Below, piece after piece: positions 5,084 to 31,542 of a stretch of DNA of 33,023 nucleotides. The translations under genes and the position numbers were made by a program. Location: IMG/VR virus record IMGVR_UViG_3300045997_000109, positions 1-33,023 of that record; one strand, given 5' to 3'. The notes beneath the pieces are model-generated. The model was not told where the DNA came from, ran no database searches, and worked only from the letters and a program-made list of their open reading frames with translations. Position 1 is the first letter of the stretch. Each line of letters starts with the position of its first letter. Origin of the DNA: a virus.

Positions 5084-5842
5084 CTAGTTGGCGATCTTCT
5101 GTAGCTCCGCGTCCCAGTCGATGTCTGGGGCTTCCCCTGCGATCCGCAGATCTATCAGGTTCATCAGCGCGCGGCACTTGCCGAGGGCCTCGGTGATGAA
5201 CTCGCGCTCGTCGTCGGTGAAGCCGACGCCTTCGGCGGTATTCAGCACCTTGCGGAGCCGTTGCATTGCTACTGCGAGGTCGGCCTCGATGTTGAGCCAC
5301 CGGCTGGTGTGGTTAGCGCGGTGCTCGGCGTCGAGGCGTTCCTGCGTGGCCGCCGCTTTGGCGTCCCACTCGACTACGGCCTCGATTTCCTCGAGTACGG
5401 CTTCGGTGTCGGCGCGGCCCTTGCGTTCGGCGCGTTCCCGGGCGCGGTTGACCACAGCGGTGAGGTCCTCGCGCTTGTTCGCGGCGATGTTGCTGACCGA
5501 GGTGCCTCGAGCCTTAGCCATGGCCTCGGCGGCCGTCCGCTTGACTTCGCTGAGCTTCGCCATCTCGCGGTAGTCGCCTGCGGTTTTGGCGGTTACGATA
5601 TCGTAACCGCCCTCGGCTGCCTTGGCGTCGTCGGCGAGTTTGTCCCGCCAGCCGTTCGCGTCGGCGCGGATGATGCTTATGCCGCGTCCGACCTCGTGGG
5701 CGTACTCGCGGATGCTGACGCGTTTGGGGTTGGACGCATCGAGCGTCCAGTGCCAGCGCAGTTCCATGATTTCCATGCCGACGCTTTCGTAGTCGGACAT
5801 CAGATCGCGGTCCTTTTTGACCACGGTTTTCGGTAGTGCCAT
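5084..5842 (-). CDS. Large helix-turn-helix protein
   Basis: A 252-residue protein. Residues 28-70 hold LRWHWTLDASNPKRVSIREY and AHEVGRGISIIRADANGW, a helix-turn-helix of the kind in ParB-like or replication-linked phage proteins. Residues 110-175 are a charged helix (RERAERKGRADTEAVLEEIE) that may be a coiled coil. The end is helical (DDEREFITEALGKCRALMNL). With its own promoter and followed by another winged-helix-like gene, it may be a regulator or partition-type protein. The perfect 24-base palindrome at 5588-5611 lies inside its gene. Confidence 0.65.
   Translation of the reverse strand: MALPKTVVKKDRDLMSDYESVGMEIMELRWHWTLDASNPKRVSIREYAHEVGRGISIIRADANGWRDKLADDAKAAEGGYDIVTAKTAGDYREMAKLSEVKRTAAEAMAKARGTSVSNIAANKREDLTAVVNRARERAERKGRADTEAVLEEIEAVVEWDAKAAATQERLDAEHRANHTSRWLNIEADLAVAMQRLRKVLNTAEGVGFTDDEREFITEALGKCRALMNLIDLRIAGEAPDIDWDAELQKIAN
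5588..5611. promoter_or_regulatory. Perfect 24-base palindrome, copy 1 of a repeated 20-base sequence
   Basis: All 24 bases pair around the GATATC centre, with GGCGGTTACGAT as the left arm. It encodes GGYDIVTA in the HTH protein gene. The first 20 bases recur at 16086-16105. A binding site for the HTH protein itself (autoregulation or partition) is an attractive but untested idea. Confidence 0.55.
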
Positions 5843-12874: not shown

Positions 12875-12928
12875 GGGGGCCTCCTTGGCCTCGGGGCGCG
12901 GGCGGGGTGCCCTGCGCGGGTAAGAACG

Positions 12929-12957
12929 AATATACACGCGCCGCGCGGTGCGTGCAA
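12929..12957 (-). promoter_or_regulatory. Strong promoter before the 12542-12874 gene
   Basis: TTGCAC (12952-12957), 17 bases, TATATT (12929-12934) on the minus strand. It matches the promoter at 14915-14943 in both hexamers and nearly all of the spacer. Confidence 0.75.
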
Positions 12958-13035: not shown

Positions 13036-13218
13036 CTACGCGTCAGCCCGGGCACGGGCCAGCGATTCGATGTCGGCCCTATCGAACAGGTACGGGCCGT
13101 TCTTCTGCGGCAGCTTCATAGCCGGCGCGAGGCGTTCCTCGCTGATCCAGCGGTACAGCGTGGCCTTGTCGATGTCGAGCAGCCGGCAGGCTTCTTTTGT
13201 GCCGATCAAGTTCTGCAT
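13036..13218 (-). CDS. Excisionase-like helix-turn-helix protein
   Basis: A 60-residue protein. Almost all of it is a MerR-type winged helix as in excisionase-family DNA-binding proteins: TKEACRLLDIDKATLYRWI is the helix-turn-helix and RLAPAMKLPQKNGPYLFDRADI the wing. Such proteins steer integrase to excision or act as small transcription regulators. It has its own promoter, a strong AAAGGAGG ribosome site and a terminator hairpin, so it is a separate unit. No integrase is nearby, so a regulator role is as likely as excision. Confidence 0.8.
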   Translation of the reverse strand: MQNLIGTKEACRLLDIDKATLYRWISEERLAPAMKLPQKNGPYLFDRADIESLARARADA

Positions 13219-13280: not shown

Positions 13281-13428
13281 ACAGCGCGCCGAGCAGCGCC
13301 AGTATCAGCAGCAGCAGCAGCGGGGCCAGGGCTACCGTCGCCCATGCCTCTTGCTGCGCCGGCCGGGGCGGGCAGCGCCACAGCCCGATACAGCCGGCGA
13401 GGGCCAGGGCGGCCAGCGCGGCGGTCAC
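13279..13428 (-). CDS. Small two-helix membrane protein (49 residues)
   Basis: Starts at GTG 13428, overlapping the preceding stop as GTGA. It reads MTAALAALALAGCIGLWRC, a polar PPRPAQQEAWA loop, and LAPLLLLLILALLGAL. Two hydrophobic segments would make a hairpin in the membrane. The stop lies within the promoter of the following gene. Candidate roles are a second holin-like protein or a partner of the zinc-ribbon membrane protein upstream; neither is proven. Confidence 0.65.
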   Translation of the reverse strand: MTAALAALALAGCIGLWRCPPRPAQQEAWATVALAPLLLLLILALLGAL

Positions 13429-13766
13429 GATTCACCCGCGATCAGCCGCTCGCGTTTGGCGACGGGGCTGCCCGGGTGGGCATACCCGCCGTTATTCATG
13501 CAATCGCGGCAGATGTAGCGGTTAAACGTGGTCCACACCATGACGGTGTGGTCGGTGCAGTCGCACTCGGGGCACCAGTGCCGGACGGCCGGCCGGCGCG
13601 GCAGCGGGGTCGCTGGCCGGCCGCGCGCCGGCACGTATACCGGCGACGCGGGGGTGCTGGCCGGCGGCCGCTTGGCGAAATGATCGACCACGGCCGCCAG
13701 GGCGGCGACGCCGCCGACCACAAGCGTTATCAGAATCAGCGACGCCGCTGCAGTCGAGGCCATCAT
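13425..13766 (-). CDS. Membrane-anchored zinc-ribbon protein
   Basis: A 113-residue protein. Residues 7-28 (AASLILITLVVGGVAALAAVV) form a membrane helix. After a proline-rich spacer, residues 64-92 hold CPECDC and CRDC, a four-cysteine zinc ribbon, facing the cytoplasm or the outside. Its start overlaps the preceding stop and its own stop overlaps the next start. Two adjacent ATG codons are possible (13766 and 13763). Function unknown; part of an envelope-linked set with its neighbours. Confidence 0.7.
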   Translation of the reverse strand: MMASTAAASLILITLVVGGVAALAAVVDHFAKRPPASTPASPVYVPARGRPATPLPRRPAVRHWCPECDCTDHTVMVWTTFNRYICRDCMNNGGYAHPGSPVAKRERLIAGES

Positions 13767-14334: not shown

Positions 14335-14376
14335 GGTTCCTACTTTCGGGTTGGTGGGGTCCTTCTACTGCCTCAT

Positions 14377-14401
14377 GCCCGCCACCTCGAGGGTGACGGG
14401 C
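14377..14401 (-). terminator. Hairpin, module copy 2
   Basis: GCCCGCCACC-TCGAG-GGTGACGGGC, the same as the hairpin at 15695-15719 except for one stem base, which leaves a C-A mismatch. It follows the stop of the gene at 14417. Flanking TTCTACTGCC and GGGGCGGGGCGGG sequences are shared too. Confidence 0.5.
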
Positions 14402-14416
14402 AGGGGGCGGGGCGGG

Positions 14417-14947: not shown

Positions 14948-15268
14948 TCAGCACCAGCGGGTGTGATTGCACGGGTTCAGCGGGTTGCGGACGTGCGGGT
15001 GCGGTATGTGCGGCTTCGGCACCACGATGACCGTATTACCGCCCTCGGCGGGCGGTGCCGGCTCGGCGGGCGGCGTCGAGGGTACGGGGGCCGGCGCTTG
15101 AATCGTCACTGTGACGGTAGGCGTCGGGGTGGGCCAGCTGGTCGAGGTCGGCGCGGGCCGGCTCGGGGCCGGCGCGGCGGGTGCGCTGTCGGTGATCGCG
15201 GACAGGATGGCCGCGCCCACCAGGACGATAAGGGCGGTGATCCATCCGGCGCGGGCGTTGTCTGACAT
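14948..15268 (-). CDS. Membrane-anchored or secreted proline-rich protein
   Basis: A 106-residue protein. Residues 8-25 (WITALIVLVGAAILSAI) form one membrane segment or uncleaved signal. The rest is rich in Pro, Ala, Thr and Ser (PTSTSWPTPTPTVTVTIQAP), then PKPHIPHPHVRNPLNPCNHTRWC with several His and two Cys. It would sit outside the membrane. Exported proteins of this kind in temperate phages may alter the infected cell's surface; this is speculation. ATG 15268 follows CCGAAAGGA. Confidence 0.65.
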   Translation of the reverse strand: MSDNARAGWITALIVLVGAAILSAITDSAPAAPAPSRPAPTSTSWPTPTPTVTVTIQAPAPVPSTPPAEPAPPAEGGNTVIVVPKPHIPHPHVRNPLNPCNHTRWC

Positions 15269-15315
15269 GGTGAGGGGTTCCTTTCGGGGGTTTAAGGGGG
15301 CTGAAAGCGGCCGGA

Positions 15316-15338
15316 GGTTTATCCACTGTGAATAAACC
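15316..15338. promoter_or_regulatory. Palindrome GGTTTAT-N9-ATAAACC between genes
   Basis: Same arms as the copy at 17496-17518, here with CACTGTG in the middle and with outer GGCCGG/CCGGCC arms (from 15310 to 15347) that would extend an RNA hairpin. It lies between the genes at 15356-15649 and 14948-15268, so it may be an operator, a terminator, or both. The TTATCCAC part resembles a DnaA box, but one copy is weak evidence. Confidence 0.45.
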
Positions 15339-15355
15339 CAACCGGCCCAAGGGGG

Positions 15356-15649
15356 TCAGTACCGGCGGGCGGGGTGTAGCCCGGGCTGCGGCTCGAGCCA
15401 TACCGCGTCGCGGCGGGAGATGGGCAGCGGGTCGATACCCGGGCGGTGCGCCGGCGTGCCTTTTTTGCGAGCCTTGCGGCGCTCGGCGGCCTCGGCCTCT
15501 TTGATGCGCTGCCATTCACGCTCGGCGCGGATACGGCGGCGGCGGCGCGCGGCCTGTTCGGCGGCGGCGGCCTTAGCTTTGGCCTGCGCCTTGCGGGCGG
15601 CCTTGGCGGCCTTGGGGCTGGTGTAGGTGACGGTGACGGGTCGAGCCAT
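15356..15649 (-). CDS. Basic, helical protein of unknown function
   Basis: A 97-residue, strongly basic protein. Residues 10-65 are an alanine/lysine/arginine-rich helix (KAAKAARKAQAKAKAAAAEQ, then RRRRRIRAEREWQRIKEAEA), probably a coiled coil or nucleic-acid-binding arm. The C-terminal part is proline-rich (PLPISRRDAVWLEPQPGLHP). ATG 15649 follows CCGAAAGGA at eight bases. Such proteins are often DNA- or RNA-binding, but no family can be named. Confidence 0.65.
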   Translation of the reverse strand: MARPVTVTYTSPKAAKAARKAQAKAKAAAAEQAARRRRRIRAEREWQRIKEAEAAERRKARKKGTPAHRPGIDPLPISRRDAVWLEPQPGLHPARRY

Positions 15650-15694
15650 TCGGGTGTTTCCTTTCGGGGTTGAGGGGTGGTTCTACTGCCCGTA

Positions 15695-15719
15695 GCCCGT
15701 CACCTCGAGGGTGACGGGC
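15695..15719 (-). terminator. Hairpin, module copy 1
   Basis: Ten-base perfect stem (GCCCGTCACC with GGTGACGGGC) and TCGAG loop, 14 bases past the stop at 15734. No T tract. A near copy lies at 14377-14401 in the same position behind another gene. Confidence 0.55.
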
Positions 15720-15733
15720 AGGGGCGGGGCGGG

Positions 15734-15979
15734 TTAGAGCCGGCCGGCCTCGAGCCGGCGCACGATGTCGGCCTTAGCGTCGGCCAGGGTCGGGTAGGTC
15801 ATCGACAGGACGGCCGCGACGTGGTGCTCGCCGGCAACCATCGAGGTGCGGGTGACGAACGCGTACCACATGCCGGGGGCGGCAGAGTCGGCGGCGCACT
15901 TTTCGATGGTGGCGACGACGGGGCCGATTTGGGTCTTGTACTCGCCGGCGGTGATGCGGCGGTAGGAGAGTGAGCGCAT
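15734..15979 (-). CDS. Small protein of unknown function
   Basis: An 81-residue protein from ATG 15979, preceded by the CCGAAAGG ribosome-site motif seen before several genes here; a longer reading to 16075 would run through the promoter and is rejected. The sequence (RRITAGEYKTQIGPVVATIEKC, MWYAFVTRT, then LADAKADIVRRLEAGR) suggests a small beta sheet with a C-terminal helix. It resembles the small single-domain proteins often found downstream of mycobacteriophage lysis genes. Function unknown. The hairpin at 15695-15719 ends its unit. Confidence 0.7.
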   Translation of the reverse strand: MRSLSYRRITAGEYKTQIGPVVATIEKCAADSAAPGMWYAFVTRTSMVAGEHHVAAVLSMTYPTLADAKADIVRRLEAGRL

Positions 15980-16016
15980 GGTGTGGGCCTTTCGGTTCGG
16001 TGGGTTGGTAGAACCT

Positions 16017-16046
16017 ACCTTACCGTGCGGTGCGCGGTGCACACAA
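16017..16046 (-). promoter_or_regulatory. Promoter of the 15734-15979 gene
   Basis: On the minus strand TTGTGT (16041-16046) and TAAGGT (16017-16022) are 18 bases apart, and the spacer carries the GCACCGCGCACCG core shared by other promoters here. An inverted repeat GGTAG-AAC-CTACC (16007-16019) overlaps the -10 and start point and may be an operator. Confidence 0.6.
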
Positions 16047-16085
16047 GTCCTTACGGTGTGAGGTCGATCACGCAAGGCAGCCGAG

Positions 16086-16105
16086 GGCGGTTACGATATC
16101 GTAAC
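16086..16105. promoter_or_regulatory. Perfect 16-base palindrome, copy 2 of a repeated 20-base sequence
   Basis: GTTACGATATCGTAAC (16090-16105) is a perfect palindrome. With four more bases on its left it is identical over 20 bases to 5588-5607. It is between the holin candidate and the promoter of the gene at 15734-15979, a typical place for a regulator or partition site. Confidence 0.5.
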
Positions 16106-16116
16106 GGTGCGCGAGG

Positions 16117-16518
16117 CTACTTGGGGCGGCGGCGGCCGCCGAGGAAACCGACCACGCCGGCGATGACCGCGCCGACCAGCGAACCGAGCAGCGCCGACAG
16201 CGGGCCGCTGAGGTTCGCGGTGCCCGGGGTGTGGGTCCGCTGCCAGTCGAGCGAGTTAATGATGATGGCGTAGACGGCCGCGCCGGTCAGCGCGAGCACG
16301 GCAATCGAGGCGGTGACGGCCAGTATCAGCACGGTGATAGTCCGTAGCCGGGTGGGGGCCGGCGCGCTGCCGGTGTCATCCTCGTCGGTGGGGGTGTAGT
16401 CCTCGGGCATGGAGGGCGGCGTATCCCAGCCGGCCGGCGGGTAGCTCGGCGGCGTGGCCGGCGGGCCGAGCGGGTCGGCGTCGGCGTTGTCCGGTTCGCG
16501 GGAATGTGTGCCAGCCAT
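16117..16518 (-). CDS. Holin candidate with two membrane helices
   Basis: A 133-residue protein directly after the lysin gene. Residues 1-58 are acidic and proline-rich, likely cytoplasmic. Two hydrophobic segments follow: about 60-87 (ITVLILAVTASIAVLALTG) and about 106-127 (LSALLGSLVGAVIAGVVGFL), with a basic tail GGRRRPK. Small two-helix proteins next to lysins are usually holins that release the lysin into the cell wall space; this is inference from context, as holins share little sequence. A GAAGG ribosome site precedes ATG 16518. The stop is 11 bases from the palindrome at 16086-16105. Confidence 0.65.
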   Translation of the reverse strand: MAGTHSREPDNADADPLGPPATPPSYPPAGWDTPPSMPEDYTPTDEDDTGSAPAPTRLRTITVLILAVTASIAVLALTGAAVYAIIINSLDWQRTHTPGTANLSGPLSALLGSLVGAVIAGVVGFLGGRRRPK

Positions 16519-16597
16519 GGGCGGCCTTCAGTCGAGGGGGCGGGGGGCGGTGCCTCGAGCACACTGTCGGCGGCCTGCGCCGGCATCGTCCTCGAGT

Positions 16598-18472
16598 TTA
16601 CTGCCCGCCGCGCTGCTCGGGGATGATCCGCTCGGCGATGGCGTCGAGCTTGCGGTGTAGCAGGGCCAGGGAATCGACCACGGTCAAGTCGCCTAGTTGC
16701 GGCCAGCCGCGCCCGCCGGGGCCGCGTAGCGACGCCCAAACGTCCTCGAGTAGCTGCCGGTCGGTGCGGCCGTTAGCCGGTGCCGGCAGGATCGGCGGGG
16801 GCACCTCGGCCTCGGCGGCCGGCCGCCGAAACTCGCCGGCCATAGCTTTCGTGACCTCGCCGCGAAACCAGTTCATGTCGAGGTTCCCGGGATCCCATTT
16901 GCCCTGCGCCGCGCCGGCCCATTCTTTATGACCGATGACGTGGCTTGCGGGTAGGCCGAGGCGGGCGGTCAGCGCCGCGCACGTGTCGCGCATCGAGATG
17001 ATTTGCGCGTCGGGCCAGCGTTGGCGCGGGTTGTAGGTGCCGTCGGCCGTGATGTCCGGCCACGCGCACTCTATGCCGATCATGTGCCAGTTCGCGTCGT
17101 TGGTCGGCAGCCACGGGTATGCGCCTCGGCCGGCGTGCCAGCACACGCCCACCGCGACGATAGTGACGGTGCCGTCCGGCGCAATGTGCAGGTTGGCGAG
17201 GGGGCCGTCGAGGTCGGGGCGGCCTCGAGCTATCGACTCGGCCGGCTCGCGGCTGTTGCCGGTGTGGTGGACCATCACGCCGCGTATGTCCTGAAAGTCG
17301 CCGTGTCCTCGGTCTTGCCAGCCGTCGAGGGTGCGGAGCCGGTCGCCGAGGGCCGGCCGTAGCACGTCCTCGAGCCAGATCGGGTCGCCGGTCCAGCCGG
17401 CGCGGGGGGTGGCGGCCACGGGTGTTACCTCCGGTTGTGGGCTGGCCGGCTCGGGGGGTTTATTAGTCCCTAATAACTCGGGGGCCGGCTCGGGCGGTTT
17501 ATAGGTGACCGATAAACCTCCGCGTGCTTCGAGGGTGCCGTCGAACAGCAGCACGTGATACGGGTTGTTGCCGGCTGTTCCCCACTGCGACACCAGAAAC
17601 CGCATACCGCCGTCGCGGTTCAGTTCAGACCCGGGCACGATATAGCCGCCATAGAGTTGCGGGGTGTCCTGCCCGAACGCGTAGTCGATCCGGTTGCAGC
17701 GGGCCGGGTCGGCGAGGTCGTCCGGCGTCGCGGCGGTGACCGCCGTCTGGCAGTACCGCTCGGCGTCGAAGTAGGACAGCACCGCGTTGCCTTGCACGTT
17801 ACGCAGGCACAGTTCGCCGGCGCGGCCGCCAATGATGGGGGTGTCCTCGTTGGGGTGGCCCCACGCCCACCTCGAGCCGTCCCAGCCGTACGGTTCCCAA
17901 CGCCCATAGGGGAATGCGCCGGCGGGGCAGCGCCACAGCCAGATAGGGCGGTCGCGGGCTAGCCCGTTGGTGCCGCAGATGTGCACGTAGTCGCCGAACT
18001 GGTCGAACGTCAGCATGACGTTGCCGGGGTGGCCCGGGTGGCGTAGCTGTAGGAACGGGTCGGTGCGATACCAGGCGCACAGGTCGCGGGATTGCCAGAA
18101 CTCGGTCACGCGTTCGTTGCCGAGGCCTTGGGTCAGCATGACCGCGACGTACCACGTGCCGCGCAGCCAGATGAAGTCGCACGGTAGGACGGTCGAATAG
18201 TCGGGGTTGTTGTGCCCGTAGGGCCACAGCTGCCGGCGGGGCTGCAGGGCGATGCCGGACGGGGTGGGCACGCCGAGCACGTTAAGGTCGGCGTCGTACA
18301 TGACCAGCGACGGGGATTGCCAGTCTTGGCCCCAGCTGAACGAAAAGTTGTCGCCGAACATGAGGGCCAACGCGTTGCGTTGCGGGTCGAAGCGGGCTAT
18401 GCCGAGGTCGGCTAGTTCCATGGCGACGGCCGAGGTGATGCCGGGGCCGGTGACGGGTTTAACGAACGGCAT
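16598..18472 (-). CDS. Two-domain lysin: DUF4185/GH183-like arabinanase plus amidase_2
   Basis: A 624-residue protein. Residues 1-320 match the DUF4185 pattern (LADLGIARFDPQ, LMFGDNFSFSWGQDWQSPSLVMYD, VHICGTNGLARDRP, GELCLRNVQGNAVLSYFDA); members of this family have been shown to be endo-D-arabinanases, GH183, acting on mycobacterial arabinan. A proline linker with two KPPEPA repeats follows (about 320-370). Residues 375-540 are an amidase_2 domain with zinc-ligand candidates His402/His403 (VMVHHTGN), His515 (VIGHKEW) and Asp527 (GKWDPG), cutting the MurNAc-L-alanine bond. The C-terminal 60 residues (RQLLEDVWASLRGPGGRGWPQLG) match a segment common at the end of mycobacteriophage lysins. It could instead be a tail-borne hydrolase. 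Confidence 0.8.
   Translation of the reverse strand: MPFVKPVTGPGITSAVAMELADLGIARFDPQRNALALMFGDNFSFSWGQDWQSPSLVMYDADLNVLGVPTPSGIALQPRRQLWPYGHNNPDYSTVLPCDFIWLRGTWYVAVMLTQGLGNERVTEFWQSRDLCAWYRTDPFLQLRHPGHPGNVMLTFDQFGDYVHICGTNGLARDRPIWLWRCPAGAFPYGRWEPYGWDGSRWAWGHPNEDTPIIGGRAGELCLRNVQGNAVLSYFDAERYCQTAVTAATPDDLADPARCNRIDYAFGQDTPQLYGGYIVPGSELNRDGGMRFLVSQWGTAGNNPYHVLLFDGTLEARGGLSVTYKPPEPAPELLGTNKPPEPASPQPEVTPVAATPRAGWTGDPIWLEDVLRPALGDRLRTLDGWQDRGHGDFQDIRGVMVHHTGNSREPAESIARGRPDLDGPLANLHIAPDGTVTIVAVGVCWHAGRGAYPWLPTNDANWHMIGIECAWPDITADGTYNPRQRWPDAQIISMRDTCAALTARLGLPASHVIGHKEWAGAAQGKWDPGNLDMNWFRGEVTKAMAGEFRRPAAEAEVPPPILPAPANGRTDRQLLEDVWASLRGPGGRGWPQLGDLTVVDSLALLHRKLDAIAERIIPEQRGGQ
17457..17479. promoter_or_regulatory. 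Palindrome GGTTTAT-N9-ATAACTC inside lysin gene
   Basis: A 23-base inverted repeat with the right arm changed from ATAAACC to ATAACTC; the inner bases TTAG/CTAA extend the pairing. It lies in the linker-coding part of the lysin gene and makes two TTA leucine codons in a row, which are rare in GC-rich genomes. It is one of three similar elements. A repressor or other protein site is suspected. Confidence 0.4.
17496..17518. promoter_or_regulatory. Palindrome GGTTTAT-N9-ATAAACC inside lysin gene
   Basis: Perfect seven-base arms around nine bases (AGGTGACCG), 39 bases from the previous copy and in the same linker-coding stretch. The repeated KPPEPA peptide explains part of the similarity between the two lysin copies, but not the left arms, which encode different residues. 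AT-rich islands like this stand out from the surrounding GC-rich code. Confidence 0.45.
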
Positions 18473-30862: not shown

Positions 30863-31542
30863 CTACCTGCCGAACAGGCGCTTTAGTCGGGGGCCGCGTT
30901 CACGCGCGGGCACCACCGGGCCGGGTATGGCTGCTTTGATCTTAGACAGCGGTTGCGGCGGCGGGGCCGAACCTGGCCGGCGGTTGGTGGTCTTACTGCC
31001 CGGGAGCACACTTGCCGGCCGGTTGCGGTTGCGGCGGCCGTCTTTCGTCTTGGCCCACGCCAGCCAGTTGAGGGCATCGACGGCCTGCCCGACGAGCCAC
31101 GCCAGCCGGGTGAAGCCGGCGCGCTCGGGGTAGACGGCAGCGTAAAGGTTGCTGTCAGGGTCACAGTGGCGGGTGATGACGAGCAGGTCGTGCCAGTTGC
31201 AGCGGTCACTCGGAAAGTCCCGCAGCCGCAGCCCTAACTCGATGAGGTCGGCTTCGAGCGCCCCGCCGTGCTGGTCGATGAGGCCGGCGAGGCCGAGGAT
31301 TCCCCCAGTGTCGTATCGTCGGCCGCCTGCCACAGCCGCATGATGTTCTCGAGTTCATTCGACGGCAGCTGGTCGAGCACCTCGAGGTCCTCGGCGGTCA
31401 ATCCCCACGCGAGGGTTTCCCACATCTGCGCCTCGTTGTCCTTGCTGTTGCGACGCAGAATGCCGATAGGCACTTGTGTGACGGGCTTGAACGTCAGGAC
31501 CCGCACCTCGCCGTCCGGCATGGTCGCTTTGTACTCGAACAA
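30863..31542 (-). CDS. Tail assembly chaperone, frameshift fusion product
   Basis: Read through a -1 shift at 31300-31306, this gives a product of about 226 residues (lambda gpGT type). After the shift the frame continues ILGLAGLIDQHGGALEADL and DLLVITRHCDP, then a basic C-terminal part ending RLKRLFGR. The second frame has no convincing start of its own and ends 10 bases before the tape measure gene, exactly the organisation conserved in long-tailed phages. Identification rests on position, overlap geometry and the slippery sequence; the exact slip codon is inferred. Confidence 0.8.
31234..31542 (-). CDS. Tail assembly chaperone, short (unshifted) product
   Basis: A 102-residue product starting MFEYKATMPDGEVRVLTFKP. 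It corresponds to the lambda gpG type chaperone that, with its frameshifted form, coats the tape measure protein during tail assembly. The helical part ends near residue 79 (LENIMRLWQAADD), after which the reading frame becomes a serine/threonine-rich tail without recognisable structure. That is the usual look of the unshifted chaperone once it passes the slippery site at 31300-31306. Confidence 0.8.
   Translation of the reverse strand: MFEYKATMPDGEVRVLTFKPVTQVPIGILRRNSKDNEAQMWETLAWGLTAEDLEVLDQLPSNELENIMRLWQAADDTTLGESSASPASSTSTAGRSKPTSSS
31300..31306 (-). promoter_or_regulatory. Probable -1 translational frameshift site GGGGGAA
   Basis: On the minus strand the codons CTG GGG GAA can be re-read as GGG GGA one base back, which moves ribosomes from the short chaperone frame into the long one. 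G-run plus A slippery sites of this kind are known from tail chaperone genes of actinobacteriophages. I did not find an obvious downstream pseudoknot by eye. Confidence 0.7.

What the first reader, a model, noticed from the sequence alone, without database searches (positions are those of the whole stretch)
15316..17518. Three GGTTTAT-N9-ATAAACC type palindromes, two within the lysin gene
Copies at 15316-15338, 17457-17479 and 17496-17518 share arms and total length of 23 bases. The two in the lysin gene force rare codons such as TTA TTA, so the DNA itself may be under selection. Symmetric sites placed both inside and between genes recall the dispersed repressor-binding stoperators of some mycobacteriophages, but with a different sequence. 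They could silence late and accessory genes in a lysogen.
Basis: partly seen in the sequence, partly recalled or inferred. Interest (0 to 1): 0.65.

Follow-up and report, generated by a model that had tools for sequence, protein, structure and literature searches.

The report
Phage palindromes upstream of lysin starts
A fragment of a mycobacteriophage-like virus carries three copies of a rare 23-base palindrome, two of them inside its cell-wall-cutting gene just ahead of a hidden second start; they are real and not chance, probably a small regulatory site of a kind already seen with other sequences in related phages, but what it does is untested.

Summary
The palindromes are where stated: 15316 and 17496 match GGTTTAT-N9-ATAAACC exactly; 17457 has two mismatches in one arm. 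They are the only copies in the 33,023-base record, which is a virus fragment, so the whole-genome test cannot be run. Chance is excluded: no shuffle of 100 gives three sites, 0 of 2000 synonymous recodings of the lysin gives the site, and 301 genomes of the Mycolicibacter family hold no exact copy. Three of the 11 TTA codons counted lie in the lysin sites.

New context: the lysin pair sits 76 and 37 nt upstream of an in-frame SD+GTG that would start a separate amidase, the embedded start proven in phage Ms6 and visible in all 17 relatives printed. The third site lies 47 nt upstream of the next gene's ATG, just after a stop codon, inside a 17-pair hairpin. Cluster O phage Ryadel has two copies of its own, unrelated palindrome 20 and 55 nt upstream of lysA.

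Best reading: a phage-specific, start-associated regulatory palindrome comparable to the Cluster O repeat, most likely bound by a phage dimer. A sequence-specific hairpin is the main rival, because the inner bases also pair while differing in sequence. It is not a Cluster A stoperator.

The parts
15316..15338 (.). Palindrome copy 1, GGTTTATCCACTGTGAATAAACC, intergenic
   Evidence: exact match
15309..15347 (-). Hairpin around copy 1: GGCCGG/CCGGCC clamp plus the palindrome, starting 8 nt after the stop of gene 15356-15649
   Evidence: fold of the - strand, -26.1 kcal/mol, z -2.4, 11 + 6 pairs
17457..17479 (.). Palindrome copy 2 (2 mismatches), in the lysin linker
17496..17518 (.). Palindrome copy 3, GGTTTATAGGTGACCGATAAACC, at the end of the DUF4185 domain and start of the linker of the lysin
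   Evidence: exact match; domain boundary from the alignment to ScoobyDoobyDoo gp240
17427..17432 (-). Shine-Dalgarno GGAGGT of the embedded amidase start
   Evidence: sequence; SD-like site before the start in all 17 relatives printed
17417..17419 (-). In-frame GTG (lysin codon 352), proposed start of an amidase-only product
   Evidence: best of two in-frame starts with an SD-like word in the lysin; same place as Ms6 lysA241
16598..18472 (-). Lysin, 624 aa: DUF4185 (about 17543-18436) + proline-rich linker + Amidase_2 (about 16883-17293)
   Evidence: Pfam and PHROGs
14948..15268 (-). Small gene of unknown function whose ATG is 47 nt downstream of copy 1
   Evidence: ORF with AAAGGA before ATG; no family
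15356..15649 (-). Small gene of unknown function ending 8 nt before the copy 1 hairpin

Best explanation
The three sites are one phage-specific regulatory palindrome placed 37-76 nt upstream of translation starts: two in tandem (39 bp apart) ahead of the amidase start embedded in the lysin, one ahead of the small gene at 15268. Most likely a phage-encoded dimer binds the two GGTTTAT half-sites and tunes expression of the downstream unit, so that the amount of free amidase is set apart from the full-length lysin. Shown: the sites, their non-randomness, their placement, and the SD+start. Inferred: that a protein binds, that it is a dimer, that the embedded start is used in this phage, and the direction of the effect.
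For: Invariant 7-bp arms in two copies with a different 9-base centre, in coding and non-coding DNA; synonymous recoding never yields the site; 3 of 11 TTA codons are spent on it; no exact copy in 301 genomes of the Mycolicibacter family, so it is not a common host site. SD+GTG directly downstream of the lysin pair, with an SD-like word and GTG/ATG at the same place in 17 of 17 relatives printed; that start is proven in Ms6 and supported for Corndog gp69. Parallel: the Cluster O repeat has invariant 7-bp arms, lies in and between genes, and its authors propose a dimeric regulatory protein; in Ryadel two copies lie 20 and 55 nt upstream of the lysA ATG.
Against: Only three copies, one imperfect, in 33 kb. 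No partner protein identified. The inner bases pair in all three copies although they differ, which a fixed half-site does not need. No promoter of the -35/-10 type was found near the sites, and the Cluster O authors think transcriptional regulation by their repeat unlikely. The placement rule was seen after the fact on three sites, two of which are neighbours.
Confidence: 0.42

Rival explanations
1. Sequence-specific hairpin. The element works as a folded strand, most likely mRNA: a stem upstream of a start that shields or exposes the ribosome site, ends or stabilises a transcript, or is bound by a phage RNA-binding protein. Copy 1 would be a terminator-like or 3'-end hairpin, as behind other genes here.
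For: The inner four positions are complementary at 3 of 4 in every copy, with different bases (CAC/GTG, GGT/ACC, TAG/CTA); chance is 0.075 per site in this window, and 12 of 102 unrelated exact matches reach it. Copy 1 has a GC clamp and folds at -26 kcal/mol on the transcribed strand, with a U-G pair that only this strand allows. It starts 8 nt after a stop codon, where other genes of the window have strong hairpins (4610, 12542, 15734, 14417).
Against: A hairpin alone does not need the same 14 arm bases in each copy. Folding energy of the lysin stretch is within the shuffled range (z -1.6); there the copies pair with each other rather than separately. No U-tract after copy 1. No Rfam match.
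Confidence: 0.3
2. Mosaic by-product. The DUF4185 and amidase parts were joined from different phages, and the linker is drifting sequence with a repeated KPPEPA motif; resemblance to the intergenic copy is partly that repeat and partly luck.
For: The linker is the junction: the first 355 aa match Myrna-group proteins, the rest match lysin A of other phages. The right flanks of copies 2 and 3 share a direct repeat encoding KPPEPA. Homologues lack the palindrome.
Against: The repeat does not explain the left arms or the match with copy 1, 2 kb away in non-coding DNA; recoding gives 0 of 2000.
Confidence: 0.15
3. Repressor operators or stoperators that silence late genes in a lysogen.
For: Symmetric sites in and between late genes; an excisionase-like HTH protein is present.
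Against: No repressor or integrase recognised in the fragment; stoperators are asymmetric, numerous and at gene ends; the sites do not sit on the repeated promoter-like motif.
Confidence: 0.1

Closest known systems
Cluster O mycobacteriophage 17-bp repeat, TGTTCGG-N3-CCGAACA (Corndog, Ryadel; PMC4351075)
   Same: Two 7-bp inverted arms that do not vary, variable centre, both intergenic and in genes, absent from the host genomes tested, tandem pair at lysA in Ryadel
   Different: Different arms; centre 9 instead of 3 bases and itself partly complementary; 3 copies in 33 kb instead of 34 in the Corndog genome; pair lies inside the lysin ORF, ahead of the embedded start
Cluster K start-associated sequences and their extended 17-bp inverted repeats (PMC3203893)
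   Same: Repeats close upstream of translation starts; inverted repeats with a variable spacer
   Different: No GGGATAGGAGCCC element here; arms are 7 bp, not 17; only 3 copies
Cluster A / CA stoperators (PMC13313380, PMC3029335)
   Same: Short repeats in and between late genes
   Different: Stoperators are asymmetric 13-14 bp sites in one orientation, many copies, at gene ends
Embedded second endolysin start of Ms6 lysA (PMC3111421)
   Same: SD + GTG in frame before the amidase domain
   Different: Ms6 has a different N-terminal part; the published text read here mentions no palindrome

Membership tests
Cluster A-type stoperators | Asymmetric 13-14 bp core in one orientation | tested here: not met
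   Sites are symmetric; definition
Cluster A-type stoperators | Many copies, intergenic or at gene ends | tested here: not met
   3 copies in 33 kb, 2 mid-gene; the rest of the genome is not held
Cluster A-type stoperators | Bound by the immunity repressor | not testable with these tools
   No repressor recognised in the fragment
Cluster O 17-bp palindrome | Sequence TGTTCGG-N3-CCGAACA | tested here: not met
   No such repeated family in the window by the scan that finds it in Ryadel
Cluster O 17-bp palindrome | Invariant 7-bp arms, variable centre, in and between genes | tested here: met
   Two exact copies, one with 2 changes
Cluster O 17-bp palindrome | More than 30 copies per genome | tested here: inconclusive
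   3 in the 33 kb held; record is a fragment
Ms6-type embedded lysA start | SD 4-9 nt before an in-frame GTG/ATG ahead of the amidase domain | tested here: met
   GGAGGT, 7 nt, GTG at 17419
Ms6-type embedded lysA start | Two protein products made | not testable with these tools
   Needs expression data
Intrinsic terminator | GC-rich stem followed by a U-tract | tested here: not met
   Copy 1 stem is followed by GCTTTCAGCCCC; the tool lists no terminator there

The most novel reading that the evidence does not exclude
A palindromic element, specific in both sequence and fold, placed inside a fused endolysin gene to control the embedded amidase separately from the full-length enzyme, as a timer of lysis; the same logic with an unrelated palindrome in Cluster O phages would be convergent.
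Probability: 0.12. Interest if true: 0.68.

Novelty: new variant of a known kind. Interest (0 to 1): 0.38.

Why it matters
Dispersed phage-specific palindromes are known in Cluster O phages, but their role is unknown. A tandem pair inside a lysin, directly ahead of the conserved embedded amidase start, gives a concrete testable link between such repeats and the expression of lysis enzymes. If false, it is a small unassigned repeat.

Tried and rejected
The nearest tail relative G001 and seven named phages have no exact copy; Nebkiss has one site with 2 mismatches. 399 genomes at order level have no match to the longer form. Close relative with the same lysin fusion: none found. Known RNA family: none. 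Intrinsic terminator: not met for copy 1. CRISPR repeat: the sequence ATAAACC at the end recalls the E. coli repeat (from memory), but the two lysin sites lie within a coding linker and there is no array; dropped. Sigma-70 promoter overlapping the sites: none found.

Full report
Observation. The pattern GGTTTAT-N9-ATAAACC occurs exactly at 15316-15338 and 17496-17518 and with two mismatches at 17457-17479; nothing else in the window reaches three mismatches, and shuffles give 0.18 on average with none of 100 reaching three. With up to five mismatches of 14 there is a gap between the three sites and the background. The record is a virus contig of 33,023 bases, identical with the window, so the complete genome is not available.

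Not chance, and not protein sequence alone. The window is 68% G+C. Nine overlapping A/T-rich palindromes are found against 1.65 in shuffles, and in none of 100 shuffles does one recur with the same arms and spacer. Recoding the lysin with the phage's codon use gives a mean of 0.108 such palindromes, three or more in 0.15% of trials, and the exact site in 0 of 2000. TTA is used for 11 of 804 leucines, and three of the 11 are in the two lysin palindromes. Gene calls for these counts were made by eye from the ORF list and are approximate. No exact copy occurs in 301 genomes of the family of a Mycolicibacter isolate, and none of the longer form in 399 genomes at order level; the same tool does find sites in records known to hold them.

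Setting. All predicted genes lie on the - strand: tail genes at high coordinates, then the lysin, then small genes. The lysin 16598-18472 is DUF4185 plus Amidase_2. Its first part matches Myrna-group proteins (56% identity to ScoobyDoobyDoo gp240) up to about residue 355, and the amidase matches lysin A of other phages, so the linker is a mosaic junction. Copy 3 starts at the end of the DUF4185 domain (GGL, where the relative has GAL with a CTG leucine) and copy 2 follows in the linker.

An embedded start. Directly downstream of the pair is GGAGGTAACACCCGTG: SD at 17432-17427 and GTG at 17419-17417, in frame, codon 352. In all 17 relatives printed, an SD-like word (AAGGAG, AGGAGG, GGAGG and similar) precedes a GTG or ATG at the same place, right before the amidase motif; many of these are related to each other, so they are not 17 independent events. 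In Ms6 this embedded gene was shown to make a second lysin, and a table lists many phages including Corndog (PMC3111421). For Corndog gp69 a fragment starting at codon 147 is the most active (PMC3314691). That this phage uses the start is an inference. Copies 2 and 3 lie 37 and 76 nt upstream of it. Copy 1 lies 47 nt upstream of the ATG at 15268. Thus all three are 37-76 nt upstream of a start on the transcribed strand; this regularity was noticed afterwards.

Hairpin evidence. Between copies the arms keep their sequence, whereas the inner bases change but stay complementary (3 of 4 pairs in each; 0.075 expected per site; 12 of 102 unrelated matches). Copy 1 has a GGCCGG/CCGGCC clamp (15309-15314, 15342-15347) and folds on the - strand into 11 + 6 pairs at -26.1 kcal/mol (z -2.4), helped by a U-G pair; the + strand folds less well. 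It begins 8 nt after a stop codon, like the hairpins behind genes 4610, 12542, 15734 and 14417. No U-tract follows. In the lysin, the predicted fold pairs the left arm of copy 3 with the right arm of copy 2 and is only moderately stronger than shuffles (z -1.6).

Parallels. The same mechanical scan that finds this family finds the Cluster O repeat in Ryadel, as a positive control, and a repeated palindrome GGTCATTACTAATGACC in G001, the nearest relative by tail proteins. In Ryadel two copies of the Cluster O repeat lie 20 and 55 nt upstream of the lysA ATG. The Cluster O paper reports 34 invariant-arm sites in Corndog, 14 intergenic, 10 near gene 5' ends and 10 inside genes, suggests binding by a dimeric protein, and doubts a role in transcription because most sites are not near promoters (PMC4351075).

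Judgement. The stoperator label is not. The most likely account is a phage-specific dyad site placed ahead of starts, probably protein-bound (0.42), with a sequence-specific hairpin next (0.30). What would decide it is listed under next steps. The copy number is small, and there is no close relative in which to watch the arms.

Noticed in passing
5588-5611 and 16086-16109: A second repeated palindrome, GTTACGATATCGTAAC, exact in both places: inside gene 5084-5842 (24-bp perfect palindrome) and in the gap upstream of gene 15734-15979. Two copies against 0.10 in shuffles; 15 unrelated viral contigs hold it once.
   Followed up: partly
about 5921, 9574, 13277, 14930 (- strand); variants near 12938 and 16027: Recurrent promoter-like motif GCACCG..TGnTAnnnT in intergenic gaps ahead of small genes; also a 39-nt direct repeat at 12919 and 14905.
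   Followed up: partly
14343-14411 and 15661-15729: 83% identical 69-nt intergenic repeat with a strong hairpin GCCCGTCACC...GGTGACGGGC directly after a stop codon.
   Followed up: partly
16598-18472: DUF4185 fused to an amidase; in Myrna-group phages the DUF4185 protein is a separate gene next to the endolysin. No other such fusion was found.
   Followed up: yes
17417-17432 and loci: SD plus in-frame GTG/ATG before the amidase motif in all 17 relatives printed, wider than the published list.
   Followed up: partly
G001 (L168:12533-12549 and 13368-13384): The nearest relative has its own repeated palindrome GGTCATTACTAATGACC, in or near coding frames (GVISNDP in both).
   Followed up: partly
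30863-31542: Two overlapping frames ahead of the tape measure gene look like tail assembly chaperones made by a frameshift; the slippery site was not examined (DUF5361).
   Followed up: no
13036-13218 and 13425-13766: Excisionase-like HTH protein and a weak recombination-directionality-factor hit, hints of a temperate phage.
   Followed up: no
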